DNA of 64,000 nucleotides from Maribacter sp. ACAM166. Lineage in GTDB: Bacteria; Bacteroidota; Bacteroidia; Flavobacteriales; Flavobacteriaceae. Both the position numbers and the translations under genes were made by a program. Within the stretch, counting starts at the first letter, position 1. Each line of letters begins with the position of its first letter. The notes beneath the pieces are model-generated. The model was not told the DNA's origin. It made no database searches and was given only the letters and a program-made list of their open reading frames with translations. The stretch lies in contig NZ_VAUW01000011.1 of NCBI RefSeq assembly GCF_005771495.1, positions 1 through 64,000 of the forward strand. The letters are read 5' to 3'. Shown piece by piece: positions 39,994-54,388 of the stretch.

Positions 39994-40722
39994 TTAATAA
40001 CCCCAATCATTATGAACTATAGGTAGACTATTAAGTTCATCTCTATACATCCTCCACTTTGGCATAAACTGATTCATAAGTGAAATAAAACGTGCATTAT
40101 GATTTCTTTCATGCAAGTGAACTAGTTCGTGAACTAGTATATATTCTAAACAAATCGTTGGCTTTTTGGCTAGTTCCAGATTTAACCAGATACGCTTAGC
40201 GTCTACATTACATGCGCCCCATTTGGTTTTCATTTGCTTTACGCCCCAATCATTGGATTGAACTCCGATGATTTTCTCCCATTTTTCAAGTAGTTCTGGA
40301 ATTTGACTTTTTAATTGCTTACGATACCACTCTTTAATTATGTGCCCTTTTTCATCTACTGTTGCACTAGGCTTTACCCAAAGTTGGATTTTATTTGCTC
40401 CTGTAATCTCTACTTTGTTATACCCATTATGATGGTTAACGTTTAATAAATACCGCTGACCTTTAAAGTAATGGCTCTCACCAGAAACGTAATCACGTTT
40501 TGTTTCTCTAGCTTGCTGTTTAAAATTCTTTACATTCTTCTTTATCCAACCTAATTTTGAAATGGCAAAAAGGCGTAATACTTCCTCATCTGTTTTAGTA
40601 GGAACAGATAACTTTATTGCTCCATTTGGAGGATAAACGGCAAGGTGCATATTTTTTATATCCTTACGTATCACCTCTACTTCGACATTTGCAAATGCAA
40701 TAGTTTCTGTCTTAATATTCAT
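39994..40722 (-). CDS. SprT/YgjP-like zinc metallopeptidase (DUF45, M48-like)
   Basis: A 242-aa protein with the zinc motif HELVHLHERNH (HExxH) near residue 200, and the upstream strand MKTKWGACNVDAKRIWLNLELAKKP typical of DUF45/YgjP. In many genomes this gene follows hsdR, and its function in restriction is unknown. Here its start overlaps the hsdR 3' end by 11 bp, so it belongs to the same operon and is the last gene. No signal peptide. Confidence 0.85.
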   Translation of the reverse strand: MNIKTETIAFANVEVEVIRKDIKNMHLAVYPPNGAIKLSVPTKTDEEVLRLFAISKLGWIKKNVKNFKQQARETKRDYVSGESHYFKGQRYLLNVNHHNGYNKVEITGANKIQLWVKPSATVDEKGHIIKEWYRKQLKSQIPELLEKWEKIIGVQSNDWGVKQMKTKWGACNVDAKRIWLNLELAKKPTICLEYILVHELVHLHERNHNARFISLMNQFMPKWRMYRDELNSLPIVHNDWGY

Positions 40723-43700
40723 TCTGCGCCTTTATAATTTCCATGATATGCAATGTAGTATCAATATCGTTAACTACTTTACCTACGGCTAGCATTAATT
40801 TCTTTTCTTTAATACCACCATCACGCCAGCCGTCAAGTTTATTTTCAATAATAGTAGAGTGAACTGTGATTGCTAGGTGTTCATTACTCTCTAAGTTGTC
40901 ATAAAGTGCTTGCTTTGCTCTTGTGTCTAGATTACTAGGGTAATTAGAACTGCTTGATGGTGTTACTACTTTACCAGCTAGTTCTTTGATTTTCTCCAGA
41001 TATTCTGCATAAGAAATTGCCTCCTCTTTTCTAAGTAATATGAGCTCATCTAATAATGCAGACATCTTCTCGTAGTACTTGGGATTTGCCTTTGCTTCTT
41101 CTACAATTGCCTTTCTTACGTTATTCTCAATAGTTTCTGCAACTGCCTCTCTTCTGTTTTTTGATTGATATTCCGCACTTGGTTCTGAAACGTGTACAAT
41201 TAAATCTACCAGTGATTTATTCTCAAAGTCAGATATTTTTTTACTCGATTTTGCATCAAGATACATATCCATTAATTGACGCATACCAGGTTCAAATCTC
41301 TTAAGATCAATGTAATCGCCACTAGCTCTTTTTATTGTTTCTCGTAAATCAGAATAGTATTTTACTTCTTCCTTAATTTCTTTTGCTTCCTTATCACTAT
41401 ATCCAAGTTTGTGAATTTCGTTTGCAACATTTGCGTATGCTCTTATTAAACTTACTACTGCTTTATATAAACCAACACGCTTATCTTCGGTAGCTTTTAT
41501 ATCTAATGGATCCTCGGTATTGCCGCAGAAAAATTTAATATAAGTAGGTTCATCTTTAGGATGCACAGGTTCACACATAGCTCTCAAAACCTCTAAAGCT
41601 GTTTCAAGACGTTCTTTGCTTTCTGTGAATCTATCTTTCAACAATCCTTTTACATCGTCTTCATCATAACCGTCAAAAACTTCTGAAGTATAATCACCTA
41701 TAGATTTTTGTAGACTTTTAAATAAATCTTTATAATCTACGATATACCCATAGTCTTTATCTTCTGTATCTATTCTATTTACACGACAAATTGCTTGAAA
41801 TAAGCCGTGGTCTTGCATATTTTTATCAATGTAGAGATAAGTGGCAGATGGTGCATCAAAACCTGTTAAGAGCTTATCTACTACGATAAGCAATTTCATT
41901 TTATTTGGCTCATTTATGAATTGTGCTTTAGCCAAAGCTTCAAAATCTTCTGTAGATTTCCCTTTAAGCATTTTAGTATATACCTCATACTTTAAGAGCT
42001 TGTCTGTAGGACTTTCTTCTCCTGTTTCTTCTCCTTTAATGTCACCGTGATGTGGTTGATAAGAGGTAATAATGGCACAGTTCTTAAAACCTGCATTTTG
42101 AAACAACTCATAATATTTACAAGCTTGATATACAGAACCAGACACGAGCATCGCGTTTCCTTCACCTGTATATAATCGAGGCTTTGTATCAAAATCGTGA
42201 ATAATATCGTTGACTATTTTTGCTAACCGAGACTTAGATCCTAAGACCTTCTGCATCGTTCCCCATTTTTGTTTTAATTGAATTTTAGCAACGTCTGTAA
42301 GACCTCTAGTTTTAACATCAAACCATTCGTCTATCTTGTCTTGGTCTGTGATAAATTGCTCTACGTCTCTAGCTTCGTACAATAAATCGAGTACCACGCC
42401 ATCTTCTACTGCTTCATCAAATTTGTATGGATCACCTATGTAGGGACCAAAAACCTCTATACTCTTTTGCTTGTCTTTTTTAAGTAATGGTGTTCCTGTA
42501 AAACCTATAAATAGAGAACCTGGTAAAATAAGTTTCATTGCATCGTGCAACTTTCCAGATTGTGTACGGTGACATTCATCTACAAAAACATAAATATCAC
42601 CTTTGGCTTTAAAGTCACTACCTAAACTAGCTCTAAGTTCTTCTATGTACGTGTCATAATCACCTTCATCAGATTTTCTGCCAAATTTATGCACGAGACT
42701 ACATACTAACATTTCTGTTTTTTGGTCTAGCACATTTATAAGATCGCGACCGCTCTTTGTTCTGTAAATATTTTCATCTACACCCGTATACAGTTTTTGT
42801 ATTTGGTCATCGAGTTCTTGTCTGTCTGTTATAATTAAAACACGACTATCTTTTACATTCTCGCGTATCCATTTAGTAAGCCATACCATCGTAAGGCTCT
42901 TACCAGAACCTTGGGTATGCCATAAAATACCGCCTGTTTTTGTCTTAATGTGCGTTTGTGCCGCTTTAATACCAAAGAACTGATTAGGACGACATAGCTT
43001 TTTTGTGCCTTTATCGAACACAATAAAATCGTGGATGAGTTCTAGTAATCGCGATTTCTCACATAATTGGCTTATGTGTTTATCAAGCAAATAATCATAC
43101 TCCTTAGTACTTTCTTCTTTCCATTTAAGATAATACTTCTCTGAGGTCTCAATAGTACCATAACGTAAGCCCTGGGTATCATTACCAGCCATTACTAGCT
43201 GCATTGTGGTGAAGTACTTTTGTATAAACTCTGGTTTCTGGTTGTCTAAGTTTTGGCGTATTCCTTCTGATACGCCTACTTTACTTCTTTTTAACTCTAT
43301 AACACCTAATGCAATACCGTTTACAAAAAGCACTACATCTGGTCGCTTAGTATGTTTTCCTTTTACGGTGACTTCTTCTGCAACTGCAAAATCGTTATTG
43401 TTTGGATTTTTCCAGTCTATAATCCAAATGGTTTCTTTGGGCTGTCCTAACTCTTCACGTACGGTAATACCATAACGTAATAATTTATAGACTTCTTTAT
43501 TAGTTTCATATAAATCATCAGATAGGCTCGTTGCGGTCTTAACCAACTTATCTACTGCTTTTTGAGCAAGCGTTCTTGAATACTTCCCATCTTTAATTAG
43601 ATAATCAAAAAGTAAGTGTTCTTCTATGGGTCGATTGCGTTCTTGTTCTTCCCAATCTCCTAAATAAGCATAGTTGAGTTCTTTTTGAAAAAGCTGTATG

Positions 43701-43744
43701 ACTCTGTTTTGAGATTTGCGTTCTGACTTGCCTATGTGGTTCAT
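40712..43744 (-). CDS. hsdR: type I restriction enzyme R subunit
   Basis: A 1010-aa motor and nuclease subunit that translocates DNA and cuts away from the recognition site when it is unmethylated. The N-terminal nuclease has RPDVVLFVNGIALGVIELKR (D...ExK). The helicase has WHTQGSGKSLTM (Walker A, about residue 280), VFVDECHRTQSG (DECH box) and a later LLTGFDAP and CRVNR. It is separated from hsdM/hsdS by five inserted genes (49,128 to 43,754). Intact reading frame. Confidence 0.95.
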   Translation of the reverse strand: MNHIGKSERKSQNRVIQLFQKELNYAYLGDWEEQERNRPIEEHLLFDYLIKDGKYSRTLAQKAVDKLVKTATSLSDDLYETNKEVYKLLRYGITVREELGQPKETIWIIDWKNPNNNDFAVAEEVTVKGKHTKRPDVVLFVNGIALGVIELKRSKVGVSEGIRQNLDNQKPEFIQKYFTTMQLVMAGNDTQGLRYGTIETSEKYYLKWKEESTKEYDYLLDKHISQLCEKSRLLELIHDFIVFDKGTKKLCRPNQFFGIKAAQTHIKTKTGGILWHTQGSGKSLTMVWLTKWIRENVKDSRVLIITDRQELDDQIQKLYTGVDENIYRTKSGRDLINVLDQKTEMLVCSLVHKFGRKSDEGDYDTYIEELRASLGSDFKAKGDIYVFVDECHRTQSGKLHDAMKLILPGSLFIGFTGTPLLKKDKQKSIEVFGPYIGDPYKFDEAVEDGVVLDLLYEARDVEQFITDQDKIDEWFDVKTRGLTDVAKIQLKQKWGTMQKVLGSKSRLAKIVNDIIHDFDTKPRLYTGEGNAMLVSGSVYQACKYYELFQNAGFKNCAIITSYQPHHGDIKGEETGEESPTDKLLKYEVYTKMLKGKSTEDFEALAKAQFINEPNKMKLLIVVDKLLTGFDAPSATYLYIDKNMQDHGLFQAICRVNRIDTEDKDYGYIVDYKDLFKSLQKSIGDYTSEVFDGYDEDDVKGLLKDRFTESKERLETALEVLRAMCEPVHPKDEPTYIKFFCGNTEDPLDIKATEDKRVGLYKAVVSLIRAYANVANEIHKLGYSDKEAKEIKEEVKYYSDLRETIKRASGDYIDLKRFEPGMRQLMDMYLDAKSSKKISDFENKSLVDLIVHVSEPSAEYQSKNRREAVAETIENNVRKAIVEEAKANPKYYEKMSALLDELILLRKEEAISYAEYLEKIKELAGKVVTPSSSSNYPSNLDTRAKQALYDNLESNEHLAITVHSTIIENKLDGWRDGGIKEKKLMLAVGKVVNDIDTTLHIMEIIKAQNEY

Positions 43745-44654: not shown

Positions 44655-45944
44655 TTATTTTACTGGTAATTCTATTCCTATTTTATAAAATCGATTGTAT
44701 TCTTTTTCTTCCTCAATAGGAAAATTATCTCCTGTAAAATCACTTCTATTTGAATTTTGATTTGAGTAAATAACAAGGCAATCTATAACCTCATGATAAT
44801 CACATTTCAAAAAATCATACACTTTTTTCAATCTTGCATAACCGCTTATCTGTCTAATATCCTCTGTACTGATGTTGCTATTTTCGTACCTAGGTTTATA
44901 TTTGGCATCTACAATCATTTTAATTAAGCCATCATTTGTTTTTACTATGAAGTCAGGTTCTAAATAATTGAATTTCTTATGATAGGTTACCTCTTGATGT
45001 TGTGTAAATCGTTCTTTAAGTTTAGCATACACATATAATTCAAACAGCTTACTCATATCAATCCAAAATGGTGGCGTTTTAACTATTTCATTAGTAGCAT
45101 TTGAAATATTGTAACCATATTTTTTCAAAATGGTTTTGGCTAATTTTATAGCAATACCATATTCTTTATACAAAATATTGGGCTTAGTGTTTTTAAGTAA
45201 TCTTATATCAACATAACTATCTACATTGGCAAAAGCAGGATTAATATAATTAATGATATTATGTGCTGAAGAAATATCTATGCCTTTTAAGTTTTGTATA
45301 GCTGAAACAGAAAAAAGCAATGCTTTTTTCAAGACCTTGTTTTCTAAACTGTTTACACCAAATTCATTATACTGGCAGTAACTATCAAAAGTATTTCCTT
45401 TGAAATGGTTATTTCTAATCGTTTGATTTATTAGAATTTTCCCTTTTACTTTTGCATTTAGGTTTTTGGTTACTTGGTAGTATGATTTTTTTAATCCTTT
45501 CTGAACAATCTTTTTTAAAACATTTAAAAATTGAATTAAGAGTAATGGAGTTAATAAATCCTGCGATTGCTGTATTGAAATACTTGGTTTGTTAAAATCA
45601 ATTTCACAAAGTTGGTCTAGGTGATTATAGTTTTGTGGTTCTTTTAATAATGCAAAAAGCATTTTTAAATAATCTACTTCCTGAATAGTATCATCTAATT
45701 TAGGATAAACGTAAATGGGTAATTCGTTCTCAACAATCCAATCTACGCCTACGAAATAAGAGGTCTCGAAACGGTAGGGATTCTCATCATTTTCATTATG
45801 TGAAATATTGAAGCAATAGGCTTTATTCTGACCACGCTGTATAGATTTATAATATGCTTTACCGTTTAACAATTCAGTAAAATTATTAATATCATCAATT
45901 ACTCGTGGGTTTTTATAACCGTATTGCTCGCAAAGTTGTATCAT
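44655..45944 (-). CDS. mcrC: McrC-like nuclease subunit of type IV restriction
   Basis: A 429-aa McrC-family protein. The C-terminal PD-(D/E)xK nuclease is seen in LEPDFIVKTNDGLIKMIVDAKYK (Asp...Asp-Ala-Lys). It partners McrB to cut DNA bearing modified cytosine. It begins 2 bp after mcrB, the standard order. The presence of type IV restriction inside a type I operon gives protection against both unmodified and cytosine-modified foreign DNA. Confidence 0.88.
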   Translation of the reverse strand: MIQLCEQYGYKNPRVIDDINNFTELLNGKAYYKSIQRGQNKAYCFNISHNENDENPYRFETSYFVGVDWIVENELPIYVYPKLDDTIQEVDYLKMLFALLKEPQNYNHLDQLCEIDFNKPSISIQQSQDLLTPLLLIQFLNVLKKIVQKGLKKSYYQVTKNLNAKVKGKILINQTIRNNHFKGNTFDSYCQYNEFGVNSLENKVLKKALLFSVSAIQNLKGIDISSAHNIINYINPAFANVDSYVDIRLLKNTKPNILYKEYGIAIKLAKTILKKYGYNISNATNEIVKTPPFWIDMSKLFELYVYAKLKERFTQHQEVTYHKKFNYLEPDFIVKTNDGLIKMIVDAKYKPRYENSNISTEDIRQISGYARLKKVYDFLKCDYHEVIDCLVIYSNQNSNRSDFTGDNFPIEEEKEYNRFYKIGIELPVK

Positions 45945-45946
45945 AG

Positions 45947-47755
45947 TTACAAGGCATTTATTTCAACCATTGCACTTTGCTTTAAGATACCATCATTTAC
46001 GTATTCTTTTAAAATAGGGATGATTTCATAGTTTTTCCTAATACTAAAATCACCATTACCGTTTATAAAATAACTATGTCCTAGCCATACATCTTCTGGT
46101 CTAAACTCTTCTGATAAATGCTCTGAGGGTTTTAAAACAACAGCATCATTTATCTTGTACTCATCATAATTTTTGATAAATAAATTAGATACTTTCTCAA
46201 ATAATTCAGTTTCAAAATTATCAATTGGAAGCGCCTTTGGTAATTTGTCGACAAATGCAAACCTTCGTCTAATAGCATAATCAATATGTCCTACACTGCG
46301 GTCTGAGGTATTCATTGTACCTATAATCAAAAGATTTTCTGGCAATAGTAAAGTATTACCATCTTCTGGCGTAGCATACATACTTTCTACTTTCTCTCCA
46401 CGATATTCTAGGGCATAAATTAACTCACCTAAAACCGCTGGCAAATTTGCTCTGTTTATTTCATCTATAATAAGAACGTAAGGTTTGTTTGAACTTATCT
46501 CTTTAGGTGTTACGTAATCCTGTAGTTTATATTTACCCTTAGGGTCTTTTAGATATTTAAGAACAATTTTTTGATAAGTTTCATATTTTAAATCTGTCTC
46601 ACCAAACTTATACAATTCATAAGTCTTTTCATACGTTGCTACTGGTGAGTTGAACTTGATGTTTTCTTGAGAATTGATGCTTACGGGAACATTACTGCTT
46701 CCTATTTTAATAACTGTACCATCGTTGATGTCCTGAACTAACTCGTGCCACGCTATATCAAAATCATCTGTACCACCAGATAAGTTGCTTTGGTTTGCTT
46801 TTTTAGCAAAAGCACCTAAAATTTTATTAACGGTTTTGTATTCTGGTGTGGTACTAACATCTGTTTTTACAACGATACCACGCACAAAATCTTCATAGGA
46901 ATAGGCAGGATGAAACTGAACCAGTTTAAATTGCTCAGATTTTTCTAAAATGGCTTTTTGTTCTTTTTTATCATCTGTCACAGTTCCAAAAATTAACTGC
47001 TCAGCAATATCTTTTGCTTCTCTCGTTTTACCTGTTCCTGGCGGACCTTGTAAAATGATTTGCTTCTTTTGGTTAAGTACCTCTACTATTTCCATATTAG
47101 TAATTCTATTTTGTACTGATTTTATGTTGGTATATAATCTATCAATAAAAGTTCTTGATTTCCATTCTACTTCTTTGGCAAGAGAAGAACGCTCTCTAAC
47201 TGAATTTTTATCTCCATCCCATTTAAAAACAAGTCGTGAAAAATATTTTTTATCTATCGCTGCACCTTTATTGTCAATAATTTGCTTGATAAGTAAAATA
47301 ATATCGTGCCAGTGATTATTATTCTCAAAATTATGATGGTATTGCCCTGATTTTCCATCAGCTGTAATTCTTTGTATAAACCCTGTTTTCTGATTGTTGG
47401 CAAGCTTCTTTAAAAATTTTTTAAAATTAGTATCATTAGGATAAGCAATTTCATCAATTACAATTTTTTCAAGCTCTGCCTGACCGCTACCTTTAGCCCA
47501 ATCATTTACTAGGTTGTCTAACCAAAATACTGGATTACCAAAATAGTTGATGATTTTTTTAGGTTTTCTTACACTATTCTGATATAGAATATTCTTGTAA
47601 TATAGTCTTTGTGTAGTAAAATATTTTCCGTTAAATGAATATACCACTTCAACAACCATCTGGTTATTTTGAAGTTCTGCTACTGTTGTAATATCGTTTT
47701 CAGTAACCTGTAACTCTTTAAAAAAACTTATACATTCTAGTATGCTTTCCCCCAT
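45947..47755 (-). CDS. mcrB: McrB-family AAA+ GTPase-like subunit of type IV restriction
   Basis: A 602-aa McrB-type AAA+ protein. Residues 1 to about 220 are an unrecognised DNA-binding N-terminal domain with no match I know. QIILQGPPGTGKTREAKDIA (Walker A near residue 240), LIIDEINRANLPAVLGELIYALE (Walker B, sensor) and IGTMNTSDRSVGHIDYAIRRRFAFVDK follow; MNTxDRS is the McrB signature. I start at ATG 47755, which overlaps the stop of a 27-codon micro-ORF (TGATG), instead of a GTG one codon earlier. Confidence 0.88.
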   Translation of the reverse strand: MGESILECISFFKELQVTENDITTVAELQNNQMVVEVVYSFNGKYFTTQRLYYKNILYQNSVRKPKKIINYFGNPVFWLDNLVNDWAKGSGQAELEKIVIDEIAYPNDTNFKKFLKKLANNQKTGFIQRITADGKSGQYHHNFENNNHWHDIILLIKQIIDNKGAAIDKKYFSRLVFKWDGDKNSVRERSSLAKEVEWKSRTFIDRLYTNIKSVQNRITNMEIVEVLNQKKQIILQGPPGTGKTREAKDIAEQLIFGTVTDDKKEQKAILEKSEQFKLVQFHPAYSYEDFVRGIVVKTDVSTTPEYKTVNKILGAFAKKANQSNLSGGTDDFDIAWHELVQDINDGTVIKIGSSNVPVSINSQENIKFNSPVATYEKTYELYKFGETDLKYETYQKIVLKYLKDPKGKYKLQDYVTPKEISSNKPYVLIIDEINRANLPAVLGELIYALEYRGEKVESMYATPEDGNTLLLPENLLIIGTMNTSDRSVGHIDYAIRRRFAFVDKLPKALPIDNFETELFEKVSNLFIKNYDEYKINDAVVLKPSEHLSEEFRPEDVWLGHSYFINGNGDFSIRKNYEIIPILKEYVNDGILKQSAMVEINAL

Positions 47756-47838
47756 CACACCAATCGCTTTTTATCAGTAAGTAACCCCTGTATCATATCT
47801 TGTTTAAGGAGCCCGTAATTCTCTTTTTTATTTTCCAT
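47755..47838 (-). CDS. 27-codon micro-ORF, diverged copy of the hsdS 3' end
   Basis: An ORF of 27 aa plus stop, beginning MENKKENYGLLKQDMIQGL and ending LTDKKRLV. It aligns without gaps with the last 27 residues of the HsdS at 49128 (LAAKKEKYEHIKQGM... LLTGKTRLV). By my count 62 of the last 75 bases match. Its ATG overlaps the preceding gene's stop (TGATG) and its stop overlaps the mcrB ATG (TGATG). I read it as a relic of hsdS left by cargo insertion that also keeps ribosomes coupled to mcrB; it may be functional only as a coupler. Confidence 0.75.
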   Translation of the reverse strand: MENKKENYGLLKQDMIQGLLTDKKRLV

Positions 47839-48338
47839 CACTTCTCAAAATTTTTAAAAAATTGCTCATCCTTTTTCAAGTAAAAAGATTGATGTCCAAA
47901 ACTCTTGTATTCTTCTTTCCAAGCCTCTCTAATAATAGCGTGATTATCATACCAAGAATTCATGCCAACTTCCCAAGACTTCCATAATTCTTCATCGATA
48001 CGTCCATTTTTATACCAATAGTATTCTTCTGCACATAAATTGAAGTAGTCATTAAGTTTATTTCTTAGAAAAGGATACTTATTAGGCTTTTTATCCATTA
48101 AATATTCCATAGATTCATGCTTAGTTATTTTTTCTAAATAACCATTAAGCACATCATAACGCTTATTATATTCTCCGAAAAGCTCCTTTTGAAGTTGATG
48201 ACTTGCAATGTCAGATTGATTTTTATTGTATTTATTAGTCGAGATCAAAACTGCCACTCCCAAAAAAAACGTAACCAAAACGCCTAAAACGTTTGTAATA
48301 AGTTCCCAGTCTATATTTAAATTATTAATTTCTTCCAT
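47838..48338 (-). CDS. unknown membrane protein in the defence operon
   Basis: A 166-aa protein, not recognised. One transmembrane segment (residues about 13-33, LITNVLGVLVTFFLGVAVLIS) after a short N-terminus, then a helical soluble part rich in Asp, Glu, Trp and Tyr (LNDYFNLCAEEYYWYKNGRIDEELWKSWEVGMNSWYDN). The layout resembles DUF4760-type proteins. Placement between hsdS-tail micro-ORFs in a restriction operon suggests cargo; an abortive-infection effector acting at the membrane is possible, unproven. Confidence 0.62.
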   Translation of the reverse strand: MEEINNLNIDWELITNVLGVLVTFFLGVAVLISTNKYNKNQSDIASHQLQKELFGEYNKRYDVLNGYLEKITKHESMEYLMDKKPNKYPFLRNKLNDYFNLCAEEYYWYKNGRIDEELWKSWEVGMNSWYDNHAIIREAWKEEYKSFGHQSFYLKKDEQFFKNFEK

Positions 48339-48379
48339 TACACTAACCGTGTTTTACCATTCAATAACTCTTGCATCAT
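48338..48379 (-). CDS. 13-codon micro-ORF, copy of the hsdS 3' end
   Basis: MMQELLNGKTRLV followed by TAA. The hsdS end reads MMQELLTGKTRLV; 35 of 42 bases match by my count. It starts inside the stop of the preceding nuclease-like gene (ATGATG over TGA) and its stop overlaps the start of the membrane-protein gene (TAATG). It is one of three tails in a row and separates the two unknown genes. Too short for normal annotation but clearly homologous to hsdS. Confidence 0.75.
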   Translation of the reverse strand: MMQELLNGKTRLV

Positions 48380-49128
48380 TTTTTATTTAAAATTACTTTG
48401 AGCACTTCTGTATCTCTCTTTTTATTTCTTACCAATTTCTTTTGAGAAGTAACCTCAAACAAAGAATAGTCTAGCTCCACTAATTGTATTCCGTTTTCTG
48501 GTAATAAGTCTCTTCTAAGTTGTTCGTATTTGGCGCGTTGTTCACCTCTATGCACTCCACTAACAGTCATTTTGTTGGGTTTGTCAAAATGACTTACAGC
48601 CTCGGTATGCTGTCTTTCGTGAAACTCAATTACTAGATTTTTTGGCGCATAATACCCATCAACTGGTAGTTTAGTTCTTAAAACACCATTAGAGTGTAGG
48701 TCTCCTTGCAAGAAATCAAATCGATGTTGCCTTGAGGCTTTTATTCCTAATATCTCATCGCATAAATCAATGATATAATCTTCATCCTTATGCTTCTTTT
48801 TGGTTGTTGATTTACTTGTCGTCGCCAGCCGTTTAACTTTTGGAGTTGCTCTAATTACTTTAGGAATTGATTGATTTGATGGAATAAAAAACCAATTTGT
48901 ATTCTTTGTTTTTTGCACACCATGAGCAAATGGTATTAAATGCAGTTGATTGCTCGCTTTTAAATTTCTCAGCACTTTTCTAATAGGTAGCCCATTTCTG
49001 TGGTCTTTTATAAAAATGCCTGCTTTTATGAGTTCAGGCATTAGGTCTTTGGCTGGTACCATAACCCAATCTTTATTTTTTTCAAAATAAGACTGGACTA
49101 CCTTGTTAATTTGGGCTGTTTTCTCCAT
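48376..49128 (-). CDS. unknown nuclease-like protein inserted after hsdS
   Basis: A 250-aa protein I cannot name. Residues 1 to about 85 look like a winged helix (NGLPIRKVLRNLKASNQLHLIPFAHG); about 95-115 is a Lys/Thr-rich linker; the rest resembles a PD-(D/E)xK-type fold: LPVDGYYAPKNLVIEFHERQH (Asp157, Glu168, His170), then GVHRGEQRAKYEQLRRDLLP and LVELDYSLFE. A nuclease with a DNA-binding domain is my inference. I start at ATG 49128, which overlaps the hsdS stop (TGATG), over a GTG one codon upstream. Confidence 0.65.
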   Translation of the reverse strand: MEKTAQINKVVQSYFEKNKDWVMVPAKDLMPELIKAGIFIKDHRNGLPIRKVLRNLKASNQLHLIPFAHGVQKTKNTNWFFIPSNQSIPKVIRATPKVKRLATTSKSTTKKKHKDEDYIIDLCDEILGIKASRQHRFDFLQGDLHSNGVLRTKLPVDGYYAPKNLVIEFHERQHTEAVSHFDKPNKMTVSGVHRGEQRAKYEQLRRDLLPENGIQLVELDYSLFEVTSQKKLVRNKKRDTEVLKVILNKK

Positions 49129-50366
49129 CACACTAACCGCGTTTTACCAGTAAGCAACTCCTGCATCATACCTTGTTTAATATGCTCGTATTTCTCTTTT
49201 TTGGCGGCTAACTCCTCAAGTTCTTTATCCATATCAGATAGGATTTCTGCAATTCTATTTTGCTCATCGATATCGGGAAAGGAAATTTCAAATTTTGAAA
49301 GAGCCTCTTTAGTTATAGTTTTTATGATACCACCAGGCGCATTTTCTTTTTCAATCTGAAATTTGAGCCATACAGAAAGCATAAAGAAATATTTACTTAT
49401 ATCTGAACTAATTGACTCAAAAATCAGCAAAGTTCTGTCCACATAAGCATCATACTGAGTAATACAAATGCGACCAATAGACCCTTGAAGAGTTAGTATT
49501 ATTGTTCCTTTTTCTACAAAAACACTTTTTTTCGAACCTTCAAGACTGATTTTTTGTTTTGTCTCAGGTTTCAGTTTGTTATTCTTATCTACATCCACAA
49601 CTTGAACGAAAGGCATTCCATTTATATCATCATACCATTTTGATAATCCATAAGGTTGCGGAAAACTACCTCTCCTGTAGGTTGCTAGCTCTTTAATAGT
49701 TTTTGTTTCCCATTTTTCATCTGGCGTTAACAACTGCTGCATCGCGCCTTGTTTTATGGCTTTCTTTTTTGCGATAAGGTCGTCTAGGTTGGTTATCAAA
49801 TTATCTACATCGCTTAATGCGGTGGCGATGGCTTTTTGTTCTTCTAGGGTTGGTGGTAGTGCAATGGTTACTTTAGATAGATATCTTCCGTTGGTCAAAG
49901 CTCTGGTAGTAAATGAACTTTTGGCTATTATTTGTGTTCTTACATAATCTGGTATAAAACAGTATTGAAAGTATTCAGATGCCACTTTTTTATTTACTGG
50001 ACGCCCGCGTAAAACAAATCCACTAAAAACACAATTATCTATATTTTCTAAAAGTACAGCAGATACACCAATCTCTTCTTGAGTTTCAGAAGTTCTAGTA
50101 AAAAATACATCGCCTTTTCTTGCTGAAAAATTATTTAGCTCTTGTGAATTCAAAAAAACTTTACCTTTTATATCCGATTTTGTCAGACCAAAGTTTTTAA
50201 AAACATCCATATAATTAATTATAGGAGTTCCGTAACCAAAAAACTCACTTTCCTTGTTTAGCCCGTTCTTAAATAATAAAGAGTCTCCAATTTTTATTGT
50301 TTCCCAATCCTTTGGAATAATCCCAATTTCAGTCTGCTTATAGCCTTCCTTTAAAGTTAATTCCAT
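49128..50366 (-). CDS. hsdS: type I restriction specificity subunit
   Basis: A 412-aa DNA-recognition subunit with two target-recognition domains, each followed by a conserved helix. The first half ends LDDLIAKKKAIKQGAMQQLLT and the second ends AAKKEKYEHIKQGMMQELLTGK, the internal repeat that gives HsdS its two-fold symmetry. It sets the target sequence for both HsdM and HsdR. It overlaps hsdM by 10 bp at its start. Its 3' end is the source of the repeated tail found twice more downstream. Confidence 0.93.
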   Translation of the reverse strand: MELTLKEGYKQTEIGIIPKDWETIKIGDSLLFKNGLNKESEFFGYGTPIINYMDVFKNFGLTKSDIKGKVFLNSQELNNFSARKGDVFFTRTSETQEEIGVSAVLLENIDNCVFSGFVLRGRPVNKKVASEYFQYCFIPDYVRTQIIAKSSFTTRALTNGRYLSKVTIALPPTLEEQKAIATALSDVDNLITNLDDLIAKKKAIKQGAMQQLLTPDEKWETKTIKELATYRRGSFPQPYGLSKWYDDINGMPFVQVVDVDKNNKLKPETKQKISLEGSKKSVFVEKGTIILTLQGSIGRICITQYDAYVDRTLLIFESISSDISKYFFMLSVWLKFQIEKENAPGGIIKTITKEALSKFEISFPDIDEQNRIAEILSDMDKELEELAAKKEKYEHIKQGMMQELLTGKTRLV

Positions 50367-52780
50367 ACCAATCCCATTTTTTCAAGATGACCAGCTACTT
50401 TTTCTTCTAGTTCGGTGTTGCTCGTATCAAGTTGTCCTAATGTATTTTCATAACGCTCTGCCAGTTCTTTAATACGACCAGTAAGACGTTGTGAGATACT
50501 GTCTATCTCGCTTTGCATAGCAGCGCTTATGGTGGTAAGCCATTTATCATCTACTACCAAAGTTCTAACTTCTGGTTCGGTGAGTTTGCCAAATTGCTTT
50601 AAAGTACTTGCATCCAGTTCTTGTTCTGCAACTTTAATTTGTTTTTTTAGTGTGGCTTCTTTTGCGAAAGCGGTCAATAGTTTGTTTCCTAAATCGTAGG
50701 CTTCTTTTTCGCTCTTGTCCCCTTTTATACTTTTAAGGTATTTGGTGAGTGTGGTTTTAGTAATGGTACCTTTATCATTTGTAGCATCACTCAATAATCC
50801 TTCTTCACCAGCATGTTCTTCATTATAGGTAGTGATTTCGGCTTGTTTGGTTTCTAGTTGTGCTACTAGGTCATTAAGTGCTTGTTGTTCGCTTGCTAAG
50901 TATTTGTCTATCACTAGCTGCTTAGGGATTAAATCGCAGGTCCAGCCTTTATCTACTTCTTTTCCTTTGCTATTTTTTTCTAGTATGCGTTTGGTTTTAG
51001 CTACCCAACCATCTTCTGCCAGTAGGTACACATCATCTTTCATCATCGCATCCCAGTAATCCATAAAATGTTGGTACATCGCATACTGGTTTACGAGTGG
51101 TTTGCCATCATACTCGTGCAATAAGGCTTCTGCAATACGCTTTTCTAATTTTTTAGGTGCGGTTTGCTCATTAATGCCTTGTAAATCTGCATAGACTTTC
51201 TCTTTCCAACTTTCAAAAACCAAAGCTAGCTTATCGCTATAATTGGTAAACTCAGGATGCGAATAAATGGCATTTTTAATATCACTAGCCGCTACATTGA
51301 GTTGTGAGTAGTTTTCGCGAAAGCGAGAAAATAAATGTGCTTTAAGGTTAGGGTATACTTTCCAGAATCTACTTAGCCCTTCTATATCTTTATTAGGGAT
51401 GCCACCATTAAGGTGTGCGTTTAAATCTTGTATATCTTCCTCTTCCTGCGTATCCACATAACGAGGGATGTTAAGGTTGTACTCATTTTTTTCAATCTCG
51501 TCAAAAGGCACAAAGCGTGCATATTTCTCCACCTCAGTTTGTGTATTAAACACATCTACTATCTGGTGAATGTCTTGCTCTCGTAGTCGGTTTTTGTTTC
51601 CGTCTTTAATAAAGCCTTTACTTGCATCCATCATAAAGATTCCATCACGCTCTTCTGTATGTTCTTTATCTATCACAATAATGCAGGCAGGAATACCAGT
51701 ACCGTAAAATAAATTTGCTGGTAAACCTATCACGCCTTTAATCCATTTACGCTCTATAATATTCTGGCGTATTGCAGCCTCTGCATTACCGCGAAACAAC
51801 ACACCGTGCGGTAAAATAACAGCACCTTTACCTGTACTTTTTAAGGATGCGAGAATATGTAATAGAAAAGCATAATCTCCGTTTTTATCTGGTGGCACGC
51901 CAAAACCTCTAAAACGATTATATACATCATCTAGGGGTACAATACCAGTATCCCAATTTTTTATTGAAAATGGAGGGTTTGCAACTACAAAGTCAAAACG
52001 TTTTAACTGTCCGTTTTCTGTAAACTGTGGTGACGCAATGGTGTTCTTGCCAGCAATAGAAGCCTCAGGGTACCCGTGCAGCCACATATTCATAATGGCA
52101 AGTCCTTTAGTTGCCACATCTTTTTCTTGTCCGTACAATGTTAAACCGTTAGGTGCCTCGCCAGCTACCTTTAATAATAGCGAACCAGAACCACAGGTTG
52201 GGTCATAAGCGCTATACGAAGGTTTATCTGCTTTGTGTACATCTATCACTTTAGATAAGATTCTAGACACCTCAGCAGGCGTGTAAAATTGTCCTTTGCT
52301 CTTACCAGATTCGGTTGCAAAGTGACGCATTAAAAACTCGTACGCATCACCTAGAACATCATCATCTTCGGCACGATTGTTTTTAAAGTTTAAGGCAGGG
52401 TTCTCAAAAATGGCAATGAGCTTAGAAAGTAGCTCCACCTTTTCTTTATCGCTACCTAGCTTCTCGTCATCATTAAAATCTACAATCTCTAGTGAACCAC
52501 CTAAACCATTAGAGTCAAACAGTGGTCGTAGTATTTCTTTATTGATACGGTCACCTATATCTGGCTGACCTTTTAACGCCACCATATCTTCAAACGAAGC
52601 TCCTTTAGGAACTTCAATTAAACTCATAGCATTACCAGCATATTTATCGCTCACATACTTCACAAAAAGCATTGTAAGTACATAATCTTTATACTGTGAG
52701 GCATCCATTCCTCCAGCACCTCTTAACTTATCACAGCTTTCCCAAAGGGATGAGTATAATTCTGATTTTTTAATTGCCAT
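50357..52780 (-). CDS. hsdM: type I N6-adenine DNA methyltransferase subunit
   Basis: An 807-aa methyltransferase, larger than the usual 500-550 aa. After an N-terminal helical domain come YDPTCGSGSLLLKVAG (SAM site) and FDFVVANPPFSIKNWD (catalytic NPPF). The C-terminal about 350 residues include a long coiled-coil-like part (about 620-800, ending LEEKVAGHLEKMGLVWN) that probably contacts HsdS. It starts 28 bp after abiEii on the same strand. Methylates adenine in the HsdS target. Confidence 0.95.
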   Translation of the reverse strand: MAIKKSELYSSLWESCDKLRGAGGMDASQYKDYVLTMLFVKYVSDKYAGNAMSLIEVPKGASFEDMVALKGQPDIGDRINKEILRPLFDSNGLGGSLEIVDFNDDEKLGSDKEKVELLSKLIAIFENPALNFKNNRAEDDDVLGDAYEFLMRHFATESGKSKGQFYTPAEVSRILSKVIDVHKADKPSYSAYDPTCGSGSLLLKVAGEAPNGLTLYGQEKDVATKGLAIMNMWLHGYPEASIAGKNTIASPQFTENGQLKRFDFVVANPPFSIKNWDTGIVPLDDVYNRFRGFGVPPDKNGDYAFLLHILASLKSTGKGAVILPHGVLFRGNAEAAIRQNIIERKWIKGVIGLPANLFYGTGIPACIIVIDKEHTEERDGIFMMDASKGFIKDGNKNRLREQDIHQIVDVFNTQTEVEKYARFVPFDEIEKNEYNLNIPRYVDTQEEEDIQDLNAHLNGGIPNKDIEGLSRFWKVYPNLKAHLFSRFRENYSQLNVAASDIKNAIYSHPEFTNYSDKLALVFESWKEKVYADLQGINEQTAPKKLEKRIAEALLHEYDGKPLVNQYAMYQHFMDYWDAMMKDDVYLLAEDGWVAKTKRILEKNSKGKEVDKGWTCDLIPKQLVIDKYLASEQQALNDLVAQLETKQAEITTYNEEHAGEEGLLSDATNDKGTITKTTLTKYLKSIKGDKSEKEAYDLGNKLLTAFAKEATLKKQIKVAEQELDASTLKQFGKLTEPEVRTLVVDDKWLTTISAAMQSEIDSISQRLTGRIKELAERYENTLGQLDTSNTELEEKVAGHLEKMGLVWN

Positions 52781-52808: not shown

Positions 52809-53600
52809 TTATAGTTTCTTTACAACCTCATTCTTTAGCCATTCAAAGGCTGCATTTTGGTCATATTTAATTTCGGGTCGTAACAAGGCTTCCATATCCC
52901 CAGTAAAATTTGGGTCTTGCTCTTTTTCTTCAATATTTAATAAAAATTGTTTTTGACTTGGTGGTCTCTTACCAGTTGAGAATGTGGTGTATTCCTTAAA
53001 ACATTTAATAATTTGTTCTGTATCTAATTGCAAATTCAATCTAGAATAATCCAAATCAAACAAATCGCGACCTTTGCTACGTTGGTATAATGCCCTAAGC
53101 TTAGTACCTAAAAGTTCATTGATGTTGTACGTTCGAATATTAGCACTTCCTTTAAACCAATCGCTTTGCACCTCAAAAGGAAATTCAACCCATGTTAGTA
53201 CATTAAAATGCTCTTTACAATTAATTTCTAATTTTAAGCGCAGTCTAATATCTTCATATTCAGAAGTAAAACGATATAATGCTTTTGCTCCATGTCCTCC
53301 GATTTTAGTGCTTCTTTTTTCTTCAAAAAATGTAATGACTTCATTGAGACGTTGCATTATTGGTTTTATTGGACCTTCTTTAATTTGAACCAAATCGATA
53401 TCTTCAGAATATCTTGGCGCAGGATTTAGATACAACTTATGCAAAGCAGTACCACCTCTAAAAGCTAGGTTTTCTCTTAGAAAATCATCAGAGAAAATTT
53501 CTACTAATGCTCTGCTAATTACAAGGTCTTGTTCTACTTGATAAAATTGTTTCCAAGGGGCTTGTTCTTGCCATTTTGCTATGTAGGGCTTTGGAATCAT
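52809..53600 (-). CDS. abiEii: AbiEii-type nucleotidyltransferase toxin
   Basis: A 263-aa toxin of the type IV (AbiE) system, of the DUF1814 family. LAFRGGTALHKLYLNPAPRYSEDIDLV carries the nucleotidyltransferase site (GG-TAL, then RxSEDIDL). LRALYQRSKGRDLFDLDY is the family C-terminal motif. AbiE aborts phage infection by killing or arresting the cell. Its start overlaps the abiEi stop by 4 bp, a normal antitoxin-toxin arrangement. Confidence 0.88.
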   Translation of the reverse strand: MIPKPYIAKWQEQAPWKQFYQVEQDLVISRALVEIFSDDFLRENLAFRGGTALHKLYLNPAPRYSEDIDLVQIKEGPIKPIMQRLNEVITFFEEKRSTKIGGHGAKALYRFTSEYEDIRLRLKLEINCKEHFNVLTWVEFPFEVQSDWFKGSANIRTYNINELLGTKLRALYQRSKGRDLFDLDYSRLNLQLDTEQIIKCFKEYTTFSTGKRPPSQKQFLLNIEEKEQDPNFTGDMEALLRPEIKYDQNAAFEWLKNEVVKKL

Positions 53601-54388
53601 AAATCGCTTTCCAGTTTTATATTCACATCAACTTTCCAGTCATTATTAATGGCTCCAGGTCTCTCTTTTGATTTTGGACTCAATAACACCGGATAGTATT
53701 TTGATGCCTTTAAGCATTCCATAATTGGTACATATAAATTAGATTCAACTTGTAGTGCTGACTCTAACAAAAAACCAAAACGTTGTAGGGTGCTTTTGTG
53801 AGGATACCAACTTAATAAGTCTTTTATGTCTTGAACGGTAATCTCTTCTGATAACTCTTCGAGAATGGCTAACATTCTATTAATGCCACCCAACTTGGTT
53901 TGATGACTAATTAAATCTGCTGCGGTTAGCGCTGGACTTGAAATTTTAAAAATACCTGCGTCCGATTTTTTTTCTAAAATGTTTTTTGTTGGCCATTTTG
54001 AAGTTGTAAAAAAATGGATGTCCAGCGATGATTTTTTAATGTTAGGAAATTGGTTATCCGTCATCACATATTCCCGTTGCACTTGTTGATGTCCTGCACC
54101 GTGAAATTTTGCAGCGGAATAAAAGCCCAGGTAATACTTACTATCCAAATAGTTAAAAAGTTTATCTGCAAATAATTGTATAGGAAGCTGTTCTTGTTTT
54201 GAATATCTTGGTGGAATGATTAGGTAAAATCCTTTTCTTAAATTTATAATTTCCTTTTTTGCTACCAATCGGGAGAGCTCTCGCGTTAAAGCAGTTTCTG
54301 TTTTATGACACTTTTGAATAAGTTCATCCCAGGAAAATGAGTACTCTTCAACCGATTGTAATTGCTTTATGTAGTCTGAAATATCCAA
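53597..54388 (-). CDS. abiEi: AbiEi-type antitoxin/transcriptional regulator
   Basis: A 263-aa antitoxin with an N-terminal winged helix (residues about 1-60, SWDELIQKCHKTETALTRELSRLVAKKEIINLRKGFY) and a C-terminal domain. AbiEi proteins repress their own promoter and counter the AbiEii toxin. An imperfect inverted repeat, ATACC...GGTAT, sits 25 nt before the start (54413-54429). All genes of the restriction operon downstream read in the same direction with short gaps, so this promoter may drive part or all of them. Confidence 0.82.
   Translation of the reverse strand: MDISDYIKQLQSVEEYSFSWDELIQKCHKTETALTRELSRLVAKKEIINLRKGFYLIIPPRYSKQEQLPIQLFADKLFNYLDSKYYLGFYSAAKFHGAGHQQVQREYVMTDNQFPNIKKSSLDIHFFTTSKWPTKNILEKKSDAGIFKISSPALTAADLISHQTKLGGINRMLAILEELSEEITVQDIKDLLSWYPHKSTLQRFGFLLESALQVESNLYVPIMECLKASKYYPVLLSPKSKERPGAINNDWKVDVNIKLESDL

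What the first reader, a model, noticed from the sequence alone, without database searches (positions are those of the whole stretch)
47755..49212. Three tandem copies of the hsdS 3' end, each coupled to a new gene
Seen directly: the hsdS end (coding MMQELLTGKTRLV then TGA) is followed by the nuclease-like gene, then a 13-codon copy (MMQELLNGKTRLV), then the membrane-protein gene, then a 27-codon copy, then mcrB. The copies are about 83% identical to hsdS at base level by my count. Every junction keeps a stop/start overlap (TGATG, ATGATG or TAATG). The copies differ from each other, so they are not one fresh tandem duplication; they look like tails of different hsdS alleles. HsdS C-termini are conserved across families, so this segment may serve as a short homology site at which defence genes from other type I loci insert. 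Each insertion would restore hsdS and keep translation coupled. I know of no described system of this kind.
Basis: partly seen in the sequence, partly recalled or inferred. Interest (0 to 1): 0.85.

Follow-up and report, generated by a model that had tools for sequence, protein, structure and literature searches.

The report
Insertion scars inside a restriction-modification operon
Short leftover copies of a restriction gene's end sit between newly added (probable) defence genes, and similar leftovers in other bacteria and archaea suggest they are scars showing how extra genes get slotted into restriction-modification operons.

Summary
Downstream of hsdS the minus strand reads Nuc | 13-codon hsdS tail | Memb | 27-codon hsdS tail | mcrB-like, with a stop/start overlap at every joint. 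Orphan hsdS tails recur in nine further loci beside cargo or other non-RM genes. But the hsdS tail is not special: hsdM tails and hsdS or hsdR heads are duplicated around cargo elsewhere. Credible scars lie in 9 of 69 cargo-bearing intervals of one sample and 2 of 64 distinct ones of a second; wrong-end, antisense and reversed controls gave none at the same cut. Six of six starts of one AAA-ATPase cargo follow an hsdS end at the same overlap: two behind intact hsdS, one behind a frame-broken hsdS, three behind orphan or truncated ends. So an orphan tail marks where an hsdS once abutted the downstream gene. Best reading: stepwise insertion or module replacement anchored at conserved RM gene ends, akin to 'insertion with long target duplication', then trimming. 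A dedicated hsdS dock is not supported; whether the mini-ORFs couple translation is open.

The parts
50357..52780 (-). hsdM (807 aa)
   Evidence: Pfam N6_Mtase/HsdM_N, PADLOC MTase_I
49128..50366 (-). hsdS, intact; its last 30 codons (49131-49220) are the parent-type tail
   Evidence: Pfam Methylase_S; sequence
48376..49131 (-). Nuc: cargo ORF, 251 aa (ATG start 49128); 'nuclease-like' not proven
   Evidence: no Pfam/PADLOC hit; homologs in hsd loci L049, L051, L172; fold search without a match at E<=0.001
48338..48379 (-). scar 1: orphan hsdS tail MMQELLNGKTRLV + TAA; start overlaps the Nuc stop (ATGA), stop overlaps the Memb start (TAATG)
47838..48338 (-). Memb: cargo ORF, 166 aa, one likely N-terminal membrane segment (by eye)
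   Evidence: no family hit; homologs L038, L039, L051, L090, L105, L203
47755..47838 (-). scar 2: orphan hsdS tail MENKKENYGLLKQDMIQGLLTDKKRLV + TGA; TGATG overlap at both ends
45947..47755 (-). McrB-like AAA gene (ATG start 47755; a GTG lies at 47758)
   Evidence: Pfam AAA_5; NCBIfam McrB model E 1.6e-31 but below its cut-off
44655..45944 (-). McrC-like gene
   Evidence: Pfam McrBC PF10117
43754..44593 (-). Bro-N protein, DNA damage-inducible protein D family, PADLOC candidate PDC-S13
40712..43744 (-). hsdR (1010 aa)
39994..40722 (-). YgjP-like metallopeptidase that usually follows hsdR in this RM family
   Evidence: HsdR and YgjP frames found in 58 each of the 81 loci, order

Best explanation
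The two orphan tails are recombination scars. Cargo genes entered the hsdS-hsdR slot one after another. In each event incoming DNA was probably anchored by homology at a conserved end of an RM gene (here the hsdS 3' end) and rejoined the resident locus a little way inside the same gene end, so that a short direct copy of that end (about 13-55 recognisable codons) was left beyond the new gene. Viable products are those that leave the upstream gene's end and the downstream gene's overlapping start intact; trimming under selection for a compact coupled operon gives the gapless joints. The tail next to mcrB would be the older scar, the tail next to Memb the younger. Shown: recurrence, cargo association, use of several gene ends, and the match between orphan tail + downstream gene and intact hsdS + the same gene elsewhere. 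Inferred: the anchor-plus-illegitimate-join mechanism, the order of events, and the selection.
For: Credible scars in 9 of 69 cargo-bearing intervals of the 81-locus set and 2 of 64 distinct ones of a second set; self-end scores >=55 in 11/138 and 2/130 trials against 0/136 and 0/82 wrong-end trials and none antisense or reversed. Same pattern at four gene ends: hsdM tail (L055, L057), hsdS tail (window, L090, L082, L160, L172, L015, L117, L118, L119, L121), hsdS head (L049, L110), hsdR head (L061, L132). One AAA-ATPase cargo (Pfam AAA_21 in L160) follows an hsdS end at the same overlap in 6 of 6 loci: intact hsdS in L146 and L150, frame-broken in L120, a ~105-codon hsdS piece in L117, orphan tails in L119 and L160. 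In L117 two hsdS ends, 95% identical over 120 nt, flank that cargo as direct repeats (next best tail 78%). Cargo ORFs beside the gapless scars are full length compared with homologs. E. coli L209/L210 cargo blocks differ between the hsdS end and the hsdR start codon. Precedents: RM-linked insertions with target duplications of order 100 bp (PMC3874152, one passage); single-crossover partial gene duplications of 109-950 bp in E. coli (PMC3240628, passages).
Against: No empty/filled pair of closely related strains was found, so no junction was seen at base resolution and microhomology could not be tested. Most cargo intervals show no scar (122 of 133 distinct). The second sample's rate (2 of 64) is lower than the first's. 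hsdS directly next to an McrB relative was not seen: McrB hits in 5 of 329 genomes incl. the own one; none of the four relatives' upstream stretches holds a tail above 8 bits, though in one (L220) an hsdS-like gene (by eye) lies three genes upstream. E. coli cargo variants had no scars (0 of 7 loci). L117 has no full hsdS, and for several scars relics of a larger deleted gene copy would look the same.
Confidence: 0.58

Rival explanations
1. Relics of a second full gene: the locus once had hsdS-cargo-hsdS (or two RM modules in tandem) and deletion removed all but the last codons of the second copy.
For: Some remnants are longer and decayed (L118, L121, L015, L055: about 35-55 codons, several with stops or frame breaks), and in L117 an hsdS piece of ~105 codons stands without the rest of the gene. 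Duplicated hsdS genes are described in other systems (title of PMC7394358, search listing).
Against: Each of the 71 loci of the 81 in which an hsdS frame of at least 280 aa was recognised has exactly one. In the self-comparison hsdM and hsdR gave no long remnant with more than about 31% identity (long matches at 20-31%, e.g. L090, L058, L042, were taken as chance). In the window and L090 the scar is flush with the cargo stop, with no leftover DNA.
Confidence: 0.2
2. One reading: the hsdS 3' end is a dedicated short docking site where cargo from other type I loci inserts, restoring hsdS each time.
For: hsdS tails are highly conserved across the relatives; a foreign-allele tail occurs (L160); E. 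coli cargo blocks differ between the hsdS end and the hsdR start.
Against: hsdM tails and hsdS/hsdR heads show the same scars; no recombinase among the family hits of the window's cargo genes; overlap frequency is equal on both sides of the cargo.
Confidence: 0.1
3. The tail mini-ORFs are kept because they work: ribosomes leaving a cargo stop re-initiate on the tail and are delivered to the next start, so the tail is a selected coupling linker rather than a passive scar.
For: Frames run open to a stop that overlaps the next start in the window (both), L117, L119, L121, L160 and L057; the short window tail differs from hsdS by 4 synonymous and 1 non-synonymous codons.
Against: The long window tail has 12 non-synonymous against 3 synonymous codon changes, as expected of decay; L015, L118, L172 and L055 lost the overlap or carry stops; overlaps are common in these operons without any tail.
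Confidence: 0.1

Closest known systems
Insertion with long target duplication (Nobusato et al. 2000; Furuta et al. 2010; not seen, only as cited in passages of PMC3874152, PMC3031569, PMC1643837, PMC2749054)
   Same: Direct repeats of order 100 bp at RM-linked insertions
   Different: As cited there, the RM genes are what inserts; here cargo inserts into an RM operon, at gene ends, repeatedly and stacked
Homology-facilitated illegitimate recombination and single-crossover partial duplication (PMC3240628, passages)
   Same: One homologous anchor and a second join nearby; partial duplication of the anchor gene (109-950 bp)
   Different: Microhomology and the donor molecule could not be seen here
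Defence genes embedded in type I RM operons: DarTG2 (PMC12255303), TgvAB (PMC11411939), PrrC (PMC12707154); passages only
   Same: Cargo inside the RM operon, for DarTG2 between hsdS and hsdR; PMC12255303 calls that site a potential recombination hotspot
   Different: No scars were described in the passages read; the window's Nuc and Memb match no family searched
Phase-variable hsdS loci (search listing only)
   Same: Extra partial hsdS sequences beside hsdS
   Different: Here direct orientation and short; no recombinase hit and no second hsdS frame in the window's operon

Membership tests
Insertion with long target duplication | Direct repeat of order 100 bp flanking the insert | tested here: met
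   Window repeats about 42 and 84 nt incl. stop; L117 135 nt, L055 162 nt and L057 138 nt
Insertion with long target duplication | Seen as a presence/absence polymorphism between close strains | tested here: inconclusive
   No close empty/filled pair among the loci; E. coli variants differ by block exchange without scars
Insertion with long target duplication | The inserted unit is an RM system | tested here: not met
   The inserted units are cargo genes between hsdS and hsdR
Homology-facilitated illegitimate recombination | 3-10 bp microhomology at the illegitimate junction | not testable with these tools
   Needs the parental sequences
Embedded defence cargo of type I RM operons | Non-RM genes on the same strand inside the hsd operon | tested here: met
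   Window; 47 of 64 loci with hsdS and hsdR seen in the 81-locus set have a gap of at least 200 nt between them
Embedded defence cargo of type I RM operons | Cargo shown to defend against phage | not tested
   Nuc and Memb have no credible family hit; McrBC-like and PDC-S13 by profile only
Phase-variable hsdS shufflon | Second/silent hsdS copy with inverted repeats and a recombinase | tested here: not met
   One hsdS frame in the window's operon, tails in direct orientation; no recombinase family hit among the ten window genes tested
Site-specific integrative element restoring a gene 3' end | Integrase encoded in the insert and a fixed core site | tested here: not met
   Nuc, Memb and the McrB-like gene have no recombinase hit; remnant lengths vary from 13 to about 55 codons

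The most novel reading that the evidence does not exclude
Gene boundaries of type I RM operons are general docking points for defence cargo. Each acquisition duplicates the flanking RM gene end, which preserves the overlapping start of the next gene. The stacked scars therefore form a readable order-of-arrival record ('growth rings') of the operon, and the mini-ORFs are retained as translational couplers.
Probability: 0.25. Interest if true: 0.75.

Novelty: new variant of a known kind. Interest (0 to 1): 0.55.

Why it matters
That defence genes sit inside type I RM operons is in print; in the papers and passages I saw, how they get there is not explained. Scars at gene ends give a sequence-only test of the mechanism and an order of arrival, and they can flag recently acquired, still unnamed candidate defence genes (here Nuc and Memb). 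If the coupling part holds, they also show how a newcomer is put under the operon's expression at once.

Tried and rejected
Rejected: a unique oddity of this genome (nine further loci carry orphan hsdS tails). Rejected: chance tails (antisense, reversed and wrong-end controls; at the looser cut of 50, one search has 13/138 self-end against 1/136 wrong-end scores, at 45 14 against 4). Rejected as special to hsdS: the hsdM and hsdR end controls gave the same kind of scar.

Corrected on re-check: I first took L117's 312-aa hsdS frame for a whole gene; only its last ~105 codons match other HsdS, so L117 shows two truncated hsdS ends around cargo, not a copy of an intact resident gene. L160 has no hsdR in the fetched stretch and is not in the interval counts. 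L029 in the second sample is the same locus as L042 in the first, so 65 intervals become 64 distinct. For these reasons I lowered the main explanation from 0.62 to 0.58 and raised the relic rival from 0.17 to 0.20.

Rows dropped. One search printed about 150 rows, down to E about 1e-4, and says more are not listed, so weaker orphans in those 395 genomes were not seen. Of 16 listed rows from other genomes with an open frame under 160 aa I fetched 14 (L116-L129; not G437:C66 and G714:C25, both at contig starts) and keep four: L117, L118, L119, L121. L116 and L129 are cut by a contig end; L120 is a frame-broken hsdS; L124 and L128 match the hsdS central repeat; L122 and L127 adjoin a shorter hsdS frame and look frame-broken; L123, L125 and L126 (18-23 bits) were not examined further. 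In one search I dismiss three self-end scores >=55 as coiled-coil-like (L058 64, L048 58, L050 57); the L082 score there lies on a local repeat and its tail rests on the 12.4-bit profile hit and the sequence. L094 is a direct repeat around cargo whose place in the hsdS reading frame is uncertain; it is counted in the 9 of 69. L061's 13.0-bit tail hit past YgjP and two 8.1-bit hits are taken as chance. L023 (broken hsdS) and L033 (contig edge) are not counted. Sub-threshold, tail-like stretches in L135, L144 and L174 (scores 39-41) are not counted. Long hsdS-like self-matches upstream of hsdM in several loci of other families (L018, L020, L021, L031-L034) lie outside the cargo intervals and were not analysed.

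Led nowhere: hsdS-McrB adjacency; plasmid search for Memb (no match); plasmid and viral searches for Nuc, which gave relatives of its C-terminal half, not examined for hsdS tails; the fold of Nuc (mean pLDDT 73.7, no match at E<=0.001; Vsr only at rank 29). Papers: no description of such scars was seen in the listings. Nobusato 2000 was not seen; Furuta 2010 is not held; the Payne 2024 preprint was not seen.
Full report
What is there. The finding lies in a type I RM operon on the minus strand, contig 11 of a 4.9-Mb genome. The order is hsdM, hsdS, Nuc, Memb, mcrB-like, mcrC-like, a Bro-N/DinD protein (PADLOC PDC-S13), hsdR, and a YgjP-like gene. Two short orphan copies of the hsdS 3' end sit exactly between Nuc and Memb (13 codons) and between Memb and the mcrB-like gene (27 codons). 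The four gene/tail joints and the hsdS-Nuc joint are all stop/start overlaps. Against the intact hsdS tail the short copy is 83% identical over 36 nt and the long copy 74% over 78 nt. A tail profile scores them 26.8 and 29.8 bits; nothing reached 8 bits on the antisense strand of the 81 loci scanned.

Is it unique? No. A 30-residue tail query over 199 family genomes returned, besides the window's two, one further short-frame tail: L015, between a 279-aa ORF and an SLFN_AlbA_2 gene. Among these plus the window, orphan hsdS tails occur in the window (two), L090 (Arenibacter) and L082, where the tail is fused in frame to the end of a PDDEXK_3 protein. A tail profile over 395 phylum genomes listed 16 rows from other genomes with frames under 160 aa; I fetched 14 and keep four as orphan tails next to other genes (L117, L118, L119, L121). 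A further 60 hsdS loci taken from the same list, plus 21 fetched earlier, gave L160 and L172 as new cases. In all, ten loci with eleven orphan hsdS tails. In L118 the upstream neighbours look like conjugation genes (by eye) and no hsdS is near; L117 and L121 hold no whole hsdS in the stretch fetched.

Is the hsdS tail special? Controls say no. The same scan with the HsdM tail found orphan HsdM tails in two cyanobacterial loci, both after cargo and shortly before hsdS (L055, L057). A self-comparison found the mirror image: heads of hsdS (L049, L110, and less clearly L094) or of hsdR (L061, L132) left upstream of cargo while the intact gene follows it. Recognisable remnants are about 13-55 codons. 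In the 81-locus set 22 hsdM-hsdS and 47 hsdS-hsdR intervals have at least 200 nt of extra DNA. Local alignment of each locus's own gene ends to its own interval scored 55 or more in 11 of 138 trials, against 0 of 136 wrong-end trials, 0 of 274 antisense and 0 of 274 reversed. I dismiss three of the eleven as coiled-coil-like, and L082's score lies on a local repeat; L090 (50) falls below that cut; L090, L082 and the short window tail rest on the profile. Counting all credible scars, 9 of 69 intervals carry at least one: 5 of 22 hsdM-hsdS (L055, L057, L049, L110, L094) and 4 of 47 hsdS-hsdR (window, L090, L082, L061). A second sample of 86 loci gave 65 such intervals (3 and 62), one of them (L029) a repeat of L042; 2 of 130 self-end trials reached 55 (L132, L172) against 0 of 82 wrong-end trials and none antisense or reversed among 212. 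Together 11 of 133 distinct intervals. L160 is not in this count because no hsdR lies in its fetched stretch.

Whose tail is it? I compared each orphan with 132 hsdS tails from frames of at least 250 aa. The window's long tail is closest to its own hsdS (rank 1, 74%; next 69%), with 12 non-synonymous and 3 synonymous codon differences, as expected of an untended copy. The short window tail (rank 2), L090 (rank 4), L015 (rank 3) and L119 (rank 3) do not decide. In L117 two hsdS ends 95% identical over 120 nt (next best 78%) flank an AAA-ATPase and a 235-aa ORF as direct repeats, but neither belongs to a whole hsdS: the first is only about 105 codons long. L160's orphan is foreign: 61% to its own hsdS (rank 76) but 88% to L146. 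In L146, and in L150, an intact hsdS directly overlaps the start of an AAA-ATPase gene; in L160 the orphan tail sits at the same overlap with the homologous gene. Six starts of this gene were found in the held loci, and all six follow an hsdS end: L146 and L150 intact, L120 frame-broken, L117 the 105-codon piece, L119 and L160 orphan tails. So an orphan tail goes with the downstream gene and marks where an hsdS once ended. I could not show this for mcrB: 5 of 329 family genomes, the own one included, had a McrB hit, and the upstream stretches of the four relatives hold no tail above 8 bits; in one (L220) an hsdS-like gene (by eye) lies three genes upstream on the same strand.

What kind of event? 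The cargo ORFs in front of the gapless scars (Nuc and Memb in the window, the Memb homolog in L090) end where their homologs end, so whole genes were placed and the joints are close to exact; other scars have roughly 15-240 nt between cargo and tail. Stop/start overlap is not peculiar to hsdS: hsdS-to-cargo joints overlap in 23 of 47 loci, cargo-to-hsdR joints in 24 of 47 (by a simple ORF rule). In E. coli, 260 of 5,426 genomes matched the distant HsdM query. Loci L209 and L210 lie at the same chromosomal site with the same neighbours; blastn finds no match between their cargo blocks from shortly before the hsdS stop, after a shared 128-bp stretch, to the hsdR start codon, where identity resumes at 91%; parts of hsdS differ too. 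I read this as exchange with gene ends as homology arms. No scar was seen in seven E. coli loci, two of them with a broken hsdS. I infer two outcomes of one process. Homology at both ends gives clean cargo exchange. Homology at one end and an illegitimate join at the other gives a short duplicated gene end, i.e. a scar. Published parallels are RM-linked insertions with target duplications of order 100 bp (PMC3874152, one passage; also cited in passages of PMC3031569, PMC1643837 and PMC2749054) and single-crossover duplications of 109-950 bp of a gene end in E. coli (PMC3240628, passages). Embedded defence genes in type I operons are known, and one paper calls the hsdS-hsdR place a potential recombination hotspot (PMC12255303, passages; TgvAB in PMC11411939, passages).

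What remains open. No close empty/filled pair was found, so neither microhomology nor the order of events is shown. Relics of a deleted second gene copy remain possible for the longer or decayed remnants and for L117, although each of the 71 loci with a recognised hsdS frame of at least 280 aa has only one. Whether the mini-ORFs couple translation is untested: several keep an overlap with the next start (window both, L117, L119, L121, L160, L057), others do not (L015, L118, L172, L055; L090 has a 1-nt gap). Nuc has an N-terminal helical part and a C-terminal alpha/beta part in the model, but no structural match at E<=0.001, so 'nuclease-like' is unproven. Names of genes outside the window rest on Pfam or record annotation where so cited, otherwise on my reading of the sequence.

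Verdict. The explanation as a dedicated hsdS dock is too narrow. Scars of stepwise cargo insertion at RM gene ends fit best, a variant of a known kind of event in a setting where I saw no description (listings).

Noticed in passing
L140, L168, L176 (hsdS frames of 611, 613, 627 aa): HsdS frames that run on about 200 residues past the usual RLV end, as if a cargo domain had been fused on.
   Followed up: no
L061:15584-16072: A 162-aa ORF made of an hsdR head joined in frame to a stretch with weak HATPase_c_4 and winged-helix hits, just upstream of the intact hsdR.
   Followed up: partly
L132:3708-4461: A 201-aa ORF without Pfam hit (transposase-like by eye) overlaps a 52-aa hsdR-head mini-ORF that differs strongly from the resident hsdR head.
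   Followed up: partly
L117 (minus strand): Two ORFs, one upstream of the first hsdS piece and one downstream of the second, end in nearly the same 30 residues: a larger direct repeat may enclose the whole cargo block.
   Followed up: no
L118:7329-7430: Orphan hsdS tail beside conjugation-like genes (by eye), upstream of an 1169-aa NTPase-like gene, with no hsdS nearby.
   Followed up: no
L018, L020, L021, L031-L034: hsdS-like self-matches upstream of hsdM in loci of other RM families.
   Followed up: no
L203:1525-1947: A Memb homolog lies between the end of an upstream frame that appears to be hsdR and a YgjP-like gene, a further cargo slot of this operon.
   Followed up: no
L209:15620-15660: The hsdS end runs through a stretch resembling the intergenic sequence and ATGG in front of darT in L208, perhaps a trace of an earlier neighbour.
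   Followed up: no
window 52809-54388: AbiEii-type gene (Pfam, PADLOC) directly upstream of hsdM on the same strand, with a further 263-aa ORF overlapping it that may be its partner (by position only).
   Followed up: no
Actinobacterial plasmids: The C-terminal half of Nuc has relatives at 38-50% identity in 11 plasmid records, in 10 of them annotated as hypothetical proteins.
   Followed up: partly
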